A DNA stretch of 64,000 nucleotides from Chaetoderma sp. LZ-2023a (taxonomy: Eukaryota > Mollusca > Caudofoveata > Chaetodermatida > Chaetodermatidae). Of the stretch, positions 51,001 through 54,000 are shown piece after piece. How positions within the stretch are numbered: position 1 is the stretch's first letter; each line of letters starts with the position of its first letter. Both the position numbers and the translations under genes were made by a program. The notes under the pieces were generated by a model. It ran no database searches. It was not told where the DNA came from and worked only from the letters and a program-made list of their open reading frames with translations. The stretch is from assembly GCA_034401795.1 (NCBI GenBank), contig CM067359.1, forward strand, positions 144,652,233 to 144,716,232, written 5' to 3'.

Positions 51001-54000
51001 AGTACATTATCTGTGTGTTTTTCATATTGTGAAGCCCTATGTGCATGCGCTCGCATACATGTGTGTTTGCAATAATTAGTACATTATCTGTGTGTTTTTC
51101 AGCCAACAGCAGTTTGTACAATCATTCGAGTCCATTACCTCCACTGATCACATCAAATAATTCTCATCTCTCATTGCCTAATGGTATCTCGCCAGTTAGT
51201 CCCCAAGTTAGTCCACACAGTCATGTAAGTATTGACAACGTCTTCAGATTGATTCTTCTGTAACTCTTTAATGGGCAAATCTGTTCAAGAAAATATTTGC
51301 AGAATAAATGTCCATTTGCAAGCCAAGAGAGGACTATTTTTTACCACTGGAAGGACTGGCTTGGTTATTGAGTCAGGCATTCCAGTGGTAAATTAAAAAA
51401 AAAAAGTTCTTGACTTGACAATGGACATTCATCAAGACCACTGCAAAGGCCAGTTTTGGCCGGCTTGACCATTAAAGGGTTAACTACTACAAAGGTACTC
51501 AGATAATTATGTACGTATTGCTATCGTATTCAGATAGTTATGTAAGTATTGCTATGGTATTCATATAATTATGTCTATCGTATTCGGATAGTTATGTAAG
51601 TATTGCTAACGTACTCTGATAGTTATGTAAGTATTGCTAACGTACTCTGATAGTTATGTAAGTATTGCTATGGTATTCAGATAAATGTCTATCGTATTCG
51701 GATAGTTATGTAGGTATTGCTAGCGTACTCGGTTAGTTATCTAACTAATGCTAACGTACTCTGATAGTTATGTAAGTATTGCTAACGTACTCTGATAGTT
51801 ATGTAAGTATTGCTAATGTACTCTGATAGTTATGTAAGTATTGCTAGTGTACTCTGATAGTTATGTAAGTATTACTATGGTATTCAGATAGTTATGTAAG
51901 TATTACTATGGTATTCAGATAGTTATGTAAGTATTACTATGGTATTCAGATAGTTATGTAAGTATTGCTAACGTATTCAGATAGTTATGTAAGTATTGCT
52001 AACATACTCTGATAGTTATGTAAGTATTGCTATCGTATTCAGATAGTTATGTGACTATTGCTATCGTATTCAGATAGTTATGTAAGTATTACTATGGTAT
52101 TCAGATAGTTATGTAAGTATTACTATGGTATTCAGATAGTTATGTAAGTATTGCTAACGTATTCAGATAGTTTTGTAAGTATTGCTATCGTATTCAGGCA
52201 GTTATGTAACTATTGCTATCGTATTCAGATAGTTATGTAAGTATTACTATGGTATTCAGATAGTTATGTAAGTATTGCTATCGTATTCAGATAGTTATGT
52301 AAGTATTGCTATGGTATTCAGATAGTTATGTAAGTATTGCTAATGTATTCCGACAGTTATGTAAGTATTGCTAATGTACTCGGATAGTTTTGTAGATAAA
52401 GCTAACGTACTTAGATGGTTATGTAAGTATTGCTAACCTAGTCAGATAATTATGTAAGTATTGCTAACCTAGTCATATAATTATGTAAGTATTGCTAACA
52501 TATTCAGATAGTTATGTAAGTATTGCTAATGTACTCAGATAGTTATGTAACTAATGCTAACGTAATCAGATAGTTATGTAAGTATTGCTAATGTACTCGG
52601 ATAGTTATGTAAGGATTGCTAACGCATTCAGATGGTTATGTCAGTATTGCTAATGTACTTAGATGGTTATGTAAGTATTGCTACTATACTTAGATAGTTA
52701 TGTAAGTATTGATAATCTACTCAGATAGTTATGTCAGTATTGCTAACGTATTCAGATAGTTATGTCAGTATTGCTGACATACTCAGATAGTTATGTAAGT
52801 ATTGCTGGCGTACTCAGATAGTTATGTAAGTATTGATGATGTACTCAGATAGTTATGTAAGTATTGCTGAAGTACTCAGATAGTTATGTAAGTATTGCTG
52901 AAGTACTCAGATAGTTATGTAAGTATTGCTGACGTACTCAGATAGTTATGTCAGTATAGCTGACGTACTCAGATAGTTAGGTAAGTATTGCTAAGGTACT
53001 TAGATAGTTAACCCTTTCACCAATGAATTCCCAGTATCTCATTTTCAATGCTGCCTTACAGAAAGACTGTTGAATATTTTGAAATTAATTTGACTGCAAC
53101 GTCTTCCAGTCAAATCAATGTAAAAAATTCAACAGAATAAGTTTTGTACTATAAAGAATTTAATTTTTCAGGGATTTGTGGGTGAAAGGTTTAAGTAAGT
53201 ATTCCTAACATATTCAGATAGTTATGTAAGTATTGCCAACGTATTCTAAAACGGTTTTACAGTGATCTTGAGAATGTCGATGTGATGATCAAGAGACTAT
53301 TTTTGGCAATTTACTGCTGGAATGACTGGCTTGATAGCCGAGCAAGTCATTCCAGTGATAAATTTTCAAAAATAATCTCTTGCTCTGCAAATGGACATTT
53401 TATATGAGAAAATTGAAATTTGTTGAACAAATTTTGGGGTTAAAAGGGTTAATGCTCAAGCCAGCCAAAGATTACTTCAGTCCTGCGGTCTTAGGAAATA
53501 TCTTTTTGTAGACCATGAGAAGAATATTATACAAAAGCAGAACCAGTCATTCCACTGAACCAGTCATTCCACTGATCAAGTCTCTTGATCTGCAAATAAT
53601 TATTTCTATCAGTAGACAGTTCTATAAATAAACATTTCTATCAGTAGACAGTTCTATAAATAAACATTTCTATCAGTAGACATTTCTATAAATAAACATT
53701 TCTATCTTTTCATGATTTGTGTATTTAACCCTTTCACTGACAAATCCCAGAAAAAGTTAGTTTGTTTACAATACAGAACTTATGCTGTTGAATATTTTGC
53801 AATTAATTTAACTGGAAGCCATTGCTGTCTAAGCCAGCAATGTCTTCCAGTTAAATCAATTTCAAAATATTAAAAAAAAATTCCTGTACAGTTTCCTTTA
53901 AAATGGGGAACTCATCAGTGAAAGGGCTAATGGTTGTTAAGAGATGTTTTTTCATTGCATTAAGTCTATGTTATCTAAATGTCTAATTCTGTTTCTATTC

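What the first reader, a model, noticed from the sequence alone, without database searches (positions are those of the whole stretch)
51219..53245. An intron minisatellite made of dozens of copies of the neighbouring exon's splice donor
The 31-bp unit AGTTATGTAAGTATTGCTAA.. agrees at 26 of 31 positions with 51219-51249, the last 6 nt of exon 51103-51224 plus its donor and the next 25 nt. About 49 units lie in the same orientation, and most keep GTAAGTAT, a near-ideal U1 snRNA target. So the true donor is followed, after one MITE, by tens of decoy donors made of its own sequence. Such an array could titrate U1, create length-variable alternative exon ends, or suppress premature polyadenylation ahead of the terminal exon. 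Seeing the array is direct; its origin by slippage from the donor and any effect are inference.
Basis: partly seen in the sequence, partly recalled or inferred. Interest (0 to 1): 0.82.

Follow-up and report, generated by a model that had tools for sequence, protein, structure and literature searches.

The report
Exon-edge minisatellite of decoy splice donors
In what is very probably a mollusc gene, the short stretch where an exon meets its intron has been copied about fifty times in a row, leaving dozens of look-alike splice signals behind the real one; this matches a kind of repeat already described in lancelets, and a few other genes of the same genome seem to show it too.

Summary
A 31-bp minisatellite (51505-53246, about 50 units) follows exon 51103-51224; 51219-51249 (6 nt of exon plus donor) matches its consensus at 26 of 31 positions. 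Two MITE-like insertions interrupt it; with the first removed, a degenerate unit bridges donor and array, so the real donor is the first copy. GTAAGTAT survives in 37 units; 37 of 49 pair with U1 about as well as the true donor. The unit is confined to this locus.

The kind is not unique. Of 21 donor-bearing arrays examined in this 2.44-Gb, probably molluscan genome, I judged 9 to begin at an exon's donor and to copy that exon's end; six have domain or gene-level support, one of them weak. Such repeats are published as "mirages" in lancelets, reported not to disturb splicing.

Decoy donors show no extra conservation (14 changes, 12 expected), and any decoy-extended exon contains a stop at 51261. 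Best reading: a neutral mirage, decoys mostly ignored. U1 titration or polyadenylation control is unsupported. No RNA data were available.

The parts
51103..51224 (+). penultimate coding exon (phase continuous with 49774-49932 and 54005-54127)
   Evidence: open frame, AG/GT borders and matching phases; encoded once in the genome; no Pfam hit, so the exon is inferred
51219..51249 (+). unit 0: last 6 nt of exon + true donor GTAAGTAT + 17 further nt
   Evidence: 26 of 31 to the array consensus, 27 of 31 to a variant
51250..51504 (+). degenerate unit 1, split by MITE 1
   Evidence: insertion-free sequence aligns to the unit, 0 of 2000 shuffles as good
51264..51479 (.). MITE 1, between GTAA (51260-51263) and TTAA (51480-51483)
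   Evidence: dispersed copies matching about 51261-51483 on many contigs (40 of 6618 candidates scored); ends read
51505..53011 (+). main 31-bp array, same strand as the gene
53012..53190 (.). MITE-like insertion 2, between TTAA (53008-53011) and TTAA (53191-53194), inside the array
   Evidence: ends read; its copy number was not searched
53191..53246 (+). last two array units
51261..51263 (+). in-frame TAA met by any transcript that passes the true donor
50854..51101 (+). 86-bp repeat, 3 copies, whose last copy is the acceptor tract of the same exon (earlier copies read TTTTTCATAT, without the AG)
54005..54127 (+). terminal coding exon ending TGA

Best explanation
It is a mirage-type minisatellite. 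The sequence spanning the end of exon 51103-51224 and its donor was duplicated in tandem and expanded by local slippage or unequal exchange to about 50 copies on the intron side; two MITE-like elements landed in it. Shown: the anatomy, the in-register true donor, the locus specificity, and similar arrangements at other exon-looking frames. Inferred: the true donor is still used because it lies at the exon edge and pairs with U1 as well as nearly all copies. The copies are mostly ignored; an occasional slip into the array would give a prematurely stopped, probably degraded message. The array has no maintained function.
For: Donor is unit 0. Unit limited to this locus: 45 of 53 genome hits at up to 3 mismatches are here, 8 are scattered elsewhere, equal to the 8 of the reversed pattern. 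Neighbouring units are more alike than distant ones (3.36 differences at lag 1, 5.0 at lag 20, not quite steadily rising), as local exchange predicts. No extra conservation of GTAAGT (14 changes, 12 expected; kept in 34 of 46 units). Nine of 21 donor-bearing arrays examined begin, by my reading, at an exon's donor, each with its own sequence. The first intact decoy gives an exon of 439 nt with the stop 278 nt before the junction. Published lancelet mirages are said not to disturb splicing.
Against: No transcript data, so donor choice is untested. The conservation test is weak (62 changes in 46 units). One unit pairs with U1 better than the true donor (-12.7 against -7.6). Repeats in introns can alter splicing: a contracted intronic repeat in dog LHX3 is associated with aberrant splicing (PMC3223203, title and abstract start in the listing), and the mirage paper itself says copies could act as cryptic sites or found new introns. 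Direction of copying is not proved at this locus.
Confidence: 0.75

Rival explanations
1. Functional U1 landing pad: the array recruits many U1 snRNPs and suppresses premature polyadenylation ahead of the last exon, or titrates U1.
For: 37 of 49 units pair with U1 within 0.2 kcal/mol of, or better than, the true donor; the donor words lie on the sense strand (39 against 1 in the window); AATAAA or ATTAAA occur in the intron at 51303, 51392, 51471, 53627, 53659, 53691 and 53869.
Against: GTAAGT columns change no less than others; donor-bearing arrays also sit where I saw no exon (11 of 21); one locus is unlikely to titrate an abundant snRNA (general knowledge).
Confidence: 0.07
2. Regulated or noisy alternative donors: array donors are used at appreciable rates, giving stop-containing isoforms that lower the gene's output.
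For: Donors equal in U1 pairing to the true one, one stronger (unit 52975); stop at 51261 ahead of every decoy junction; a 1995 paper's title reports multiple donors provided by a human minisatellite.
Against: The first intact decoy (51542) is 317 nt downstream and would make an exon of 439 nt; lancelet mirages are reported not to interfere.
Confidence: 0.12
3. An unrelated satellite matches the donor by coincidence, or the exon borrowed its donor from a satellite that was already there.
For: Only 6 exonic nt are in the unit, so direction is not fixed by this locus; the copy-extent measurement did not work here.
Against: Match probability about 1e-6 outside the shared core; bridging degenerate unit; unit not found elsewhere; at other loci 5 to 33 nt of exon-looking frame are copied, 22 nt in the EGF-domain case. 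Borrowing is not excluded.
Confidence: 0.06

Closest known systems
Mirages: tandem duplications spanning exon-intron boundaries in lancelets (Adh3, 2002 paper, cited; globin genes, PMC3087553; PGBD5, PMC3902484)
   Same: Minisatellite-like repeat spanning an exon-intron boundary; many copies carry splice signals; both 5' and 3' boundaries can be affected; concerted evolution inside, boundaries excluded (passages of PMC3087553; one passage of PMC3902484).
   Different: Probably a mollusc, not a lancelet; about 50 copies here against 3 and 6 in the two globin haplotypes read; interrupted by MITE-like insertions; no transcript evidence here.
Human minisatellite providing multiple splice donors in an interferon-induced transcript (Turri et al. 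1995)
   Same: Repeat units act as splice donors, by title.
   Different: I saw the title in three reference lists and two citing sentences; the paper is not held. That the gene is IFI6 (6-16, G1P3) and its unit 12 bp is recalled. Donor use is untested here.
Intron gain by tandem duplication of AG/GT-containing sequence
   Same: Tandem duplication creating extra splice signals (mentioned in a passage of PMC3087553; PMC4974935 seen as title and abstract start).
   Different: Here an existing intron is lengthened; no new intron is seen.

Membership tests
Mirage minisatellite | tandem repeat unit spans an exon-intron boundary | tested here: met
   51219-51249 includes 6 nt of exon and the donor, in register with the array; the exon itself is inferred from frame and splice signals
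Mirage minisatellite | copies retain splice signals | tested here: met
   GTAAGTAT in 37 array units
Mirage minisatellite | regular splicing is not disturbed | not testable with these tools
   no RNA data
Mirage minisatellite | length instability between alleles | not testable with these tools
   one assembly only; the tool holds no relatives of it
Mirage minisatellite | concerted evolution inside the cluster, edge copies excluded | tested here: inconclusive
   differences rise with lag from 3.36 to 5.0, and unit 0 differs from the others by about 7 on average; only one edge was compared, and exon constraint could also explain its divergence
Donor-providing minisatellite of the 1995 kind | array units used as donors in transcripts | not testable with these tools
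   no RNA data
Dispersed satellite family | same unit abundant elsewhere in the genome | tested here: not met
   the one other hit is a 30-bp repeat of different sequence

The most novel reading that the evidence does not exclude
In this genome, splice donors are preferred birthplaces of minisatellites: arrays bearing a perfect donor word begin at real exon ends more often than lone copies of the word lie at exon ends. If so, some feature of exon-intron junctions in transcribed DNA seeds tandem duplication and keeps supplying genes with decoy donors. My first count (9 of 21 against 0 of 18, by eye) favoured this; uniform rules applied afterwards favour it only weakly, so I lowered the probability from 0.25.
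Probability: 0.15. Interest if true: 0.75.

Novelty: new member of a known kind. Interest (0 to 1): 0.45.

Why it matters
It points to boundary-spanning minisatellites outside lancelets, the group of the two mirage papers I could read, and at several genes of one genome. With about 37 near-equal donors in a row, the locus is a natural test of how the spliceosome picks one donor among many, and of whether exon ends seed tandem repeats.

Tried and rejected
Rejected: L017 as a relative of the unit (30-bp AATACTAACACTAAC-type repeat). Not pursued: each unit as a mini-intron (24 of 46 units have a CTRAY word, 30 of 46 TCAG; no pyrimidine tract was tested, and about 23 nt is too short for an intron, general knowledge). 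Not supported: donor constraint (14 changes in GTAAGT columns, 12 expected). The copy-extent routine failed for the window because MITE 1 separates units 0 and 2; it worked for the other 8.

Is there an excess of arrays at exon donors? By eye: 9 of 21 arrays against 0 of 18 lone donor words in DNA already held (27 rows, less the window's own donor and two array units, 2-nt double rows merged); Fisher p 0.0014, or 0.03 against the 8 sites. This was not blind, and most control sites are transposon copies or lie near arrays. Uniform rules applied afterwards are weaker: an open frame of 35 or more codons upstream of the donor in 10 of 21 arrays against 5 of 20 controls (the 18 plus L034 and L053; p 0.12), or 4 of 18 without those two (p 0.09). 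That rule misses L087 (18 codons) and admits L096 and L101, which I had judged not exons; L088 could not be located by the script and was counted as not open. Controls with open frames are W15732, L094-, L096-, L098- and L034. Pfam at E 0.001: 4 of 21 arrays (L089, L095, L102, L103) against 0 of 20 controls (p 0.06; the peptides of at least 20 aa were searched, 11 of the controls, the shorter ones counted as no hit). The larger control planned (77 of 100 listed sites, 276 in all, after dropping 23 of one repeated family) could not be fetched.

The 21 arrays are those listed less one simple repeat (C1:189663) not fetched; the listings stop at about 100 rows of 973 and 429, so most arrays of the genome were not examined. 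The reversed-word controls gave more hits (6655 and 4859), so donor arrays are not numerous as such.

Support for the 9 exon calls: DnaJ L089, EGF_CA L095 and VERL_C L103 over the Pfam cut-off; I-set L102 just under it (22.8 against 23.7 bits); the window by its place downstream of forkhead exons, its own exon without a Pfam hit; L087 weak DIS3L2 matches (E 0.11). L086, L091 and L099 rest on an open frame with splice signals only (no hits).

Full report
Observation. The window lies on contig C1 of a 2.44-Gb genome. Haemocyanin units of the kind found in molluscs occur in clusters (44 matches to PF14830; that tandem units of this family mark molluscs is general knowledge), and one of the compared frames matches the sperm-lysin-receptor family VERL_C, so the organism is very probably a mollusc. 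On the + strand, forkhead-domain matches lie about 12 kb upstream of the window and at window 14934-15044 (the first confirmed, with FOXM1, HNF-3 and other forkhead structures as its matches). That the exons at 47-54 kb belong to that gene is inference, and that it is FOXJ2/3-like is recall. Exons 49774-49932, 51103-51224 and 54005-54127 read on in phase to a stop and were found once in the genome, but match no Pfam family.

The array. Period 31, about 50 units, 51505-53246, same strand as the gene. GTAAGTAT is kept in 37 units. U1 pairing energy: true donor -7.6; 37 of 49 listed units at -7.4 or better, one at -12.7. The stretch 51219-51249 matches the consensus at 26 of 31 positions. In the same register no other place in the window outside the array exceeds 21, and of 15 other GTAAGT sites none exceeds 16. 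MITE 1 (51264-51479; dispersed copies on many contigs) splits a degenerate unit that connects the donor to the array. A second, MITE-like insertion (53012-53190, between TTAA and TTAA) splits the far end; its copy number was not searched.

Locus specificity. A 592-bp array query found only this array and one repeat of other sequence. A 23-bp unit pattern at up to 3 mismatches found 53 places, 45 of them here; the 8 others equal the 8 of the reversed control.

Recurrence. Searching for three perfect donor words in a row gave 973 hits for GTAAGTAT and 429 for AGGTAAGT; the reversed words gave 6655 and 4859. The listings are capped. I examined the upstream edge of 21 listed arrays, this one included. 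By my reading nine begin at an exon's donor: the window; L086; L087; L089 (DnaJ); L091; L095 (EGF_CA); L099; L102 (I-set); L103 (VERL_C). One is unclear (L085), and in 11 I saw no exon. In eight of the nine, 5 to 33 nt of the exon-looking frame are copied into the next unit; in the window it is 6 nt with one change. Support for these exon calls is uneven and is set out under Tried and rejected.

More than chance seeding? Array density in 103 kb of loci chosen without regard to repeats (3 arrays of period 15-60 with at least 5 copies, 6 GTAAGTAT words) predicts about 10 GTAAGTAT arrays on C1; 8 were listed. Their number needs no special cause. For an excess at exon donors the evidence is mixed: by eye 9 of 21 arrays against 0 of 18 lone words (p 0.0014); by a uniform open-frame rule 10 of 21 against 5 of 20 (p 0.12); by Pfam 4 of 21 against 0 of 20 (p 0.06). 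I treat it as a lead only.

How it works. Neighbouring units are most alike, as expected of slippage or unequal exchange. Differences between closest units fall in GTAAGT columns as often as elsewhere (14 against 12 expected), no sign that the decoys are kept for use. A transcript that passes the true donor meets TAA at 51261; the first intact decoy makes an exon of 439 nt with the stop 278 nt before the junction, a setting for nonsense-mediated decay (general knowledge). The most likely outcome is normal use of the true donor, the rest being neutral. This step is inferred.

What is known. Lancelet genes carry 'mirages', minisatellite-like duplications of exon-intron boundaries at the 5' or 3' boundary, with length instability; RT-PCR suggests that regular splicing is not disturbed, though the authors note that copies could serve as cryptic sites and propose them as a source of new introns (passages of PMC3087553; one passage of PMC3902484; the original 2002 paper is not held). 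A human minisatellite providing multiple donors was reported in 1995 (title and two citing sentences; not held). Passages of PMC12783039 describe intronic minisatellites of earthworm metallothionein genes, not said there to span a splice site. In the listings I noticed no title or abstract start that reports a mollusc case. Most listed papers were not opened, among them PMC7931591 on gastropod haemocyanin introns, and the library holds only open-licence papers. I file this as a new member of a known kind. What looks new is the phylum, the copy number and the recurrence across genes.

Noticed in passing
window 50854-51101: An 86-bp repeat in 3 copies ends at the acceptor of the same exon; earlier copies keep the pyrimidine tract but lack the G of AG, so both borders of this exon touch a tandem array.
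   Followed up: partly
window 47326-47703: A 21-bp array of about 18 degenerate copies starts about 20 nt after the donor of exon ~47140-47304 on the same strand, without including the donor.
   Followed up: partly
L091 (C1:89615280-89616300, - strand): A 39-40 bp array copies 33 nt of a long open frame plus its donor; a one-unit extension of 39 nt would stay in frame without a stop.
   Followed up: partly
window 2827-8005 and 20321-25515: Two closely similar long mobile-element-like copies with large overlapping open frames; family not tested.
   Followed up: no
window 35697-37589: A 64-bp array of about 29 copies.
   Followed up: no
G000 contigs C8, C17 and C1610: Clusters of haemocyanin units, some with in-frame stops, that may be duplicates or alternative haplotypes.
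   Followed up: no
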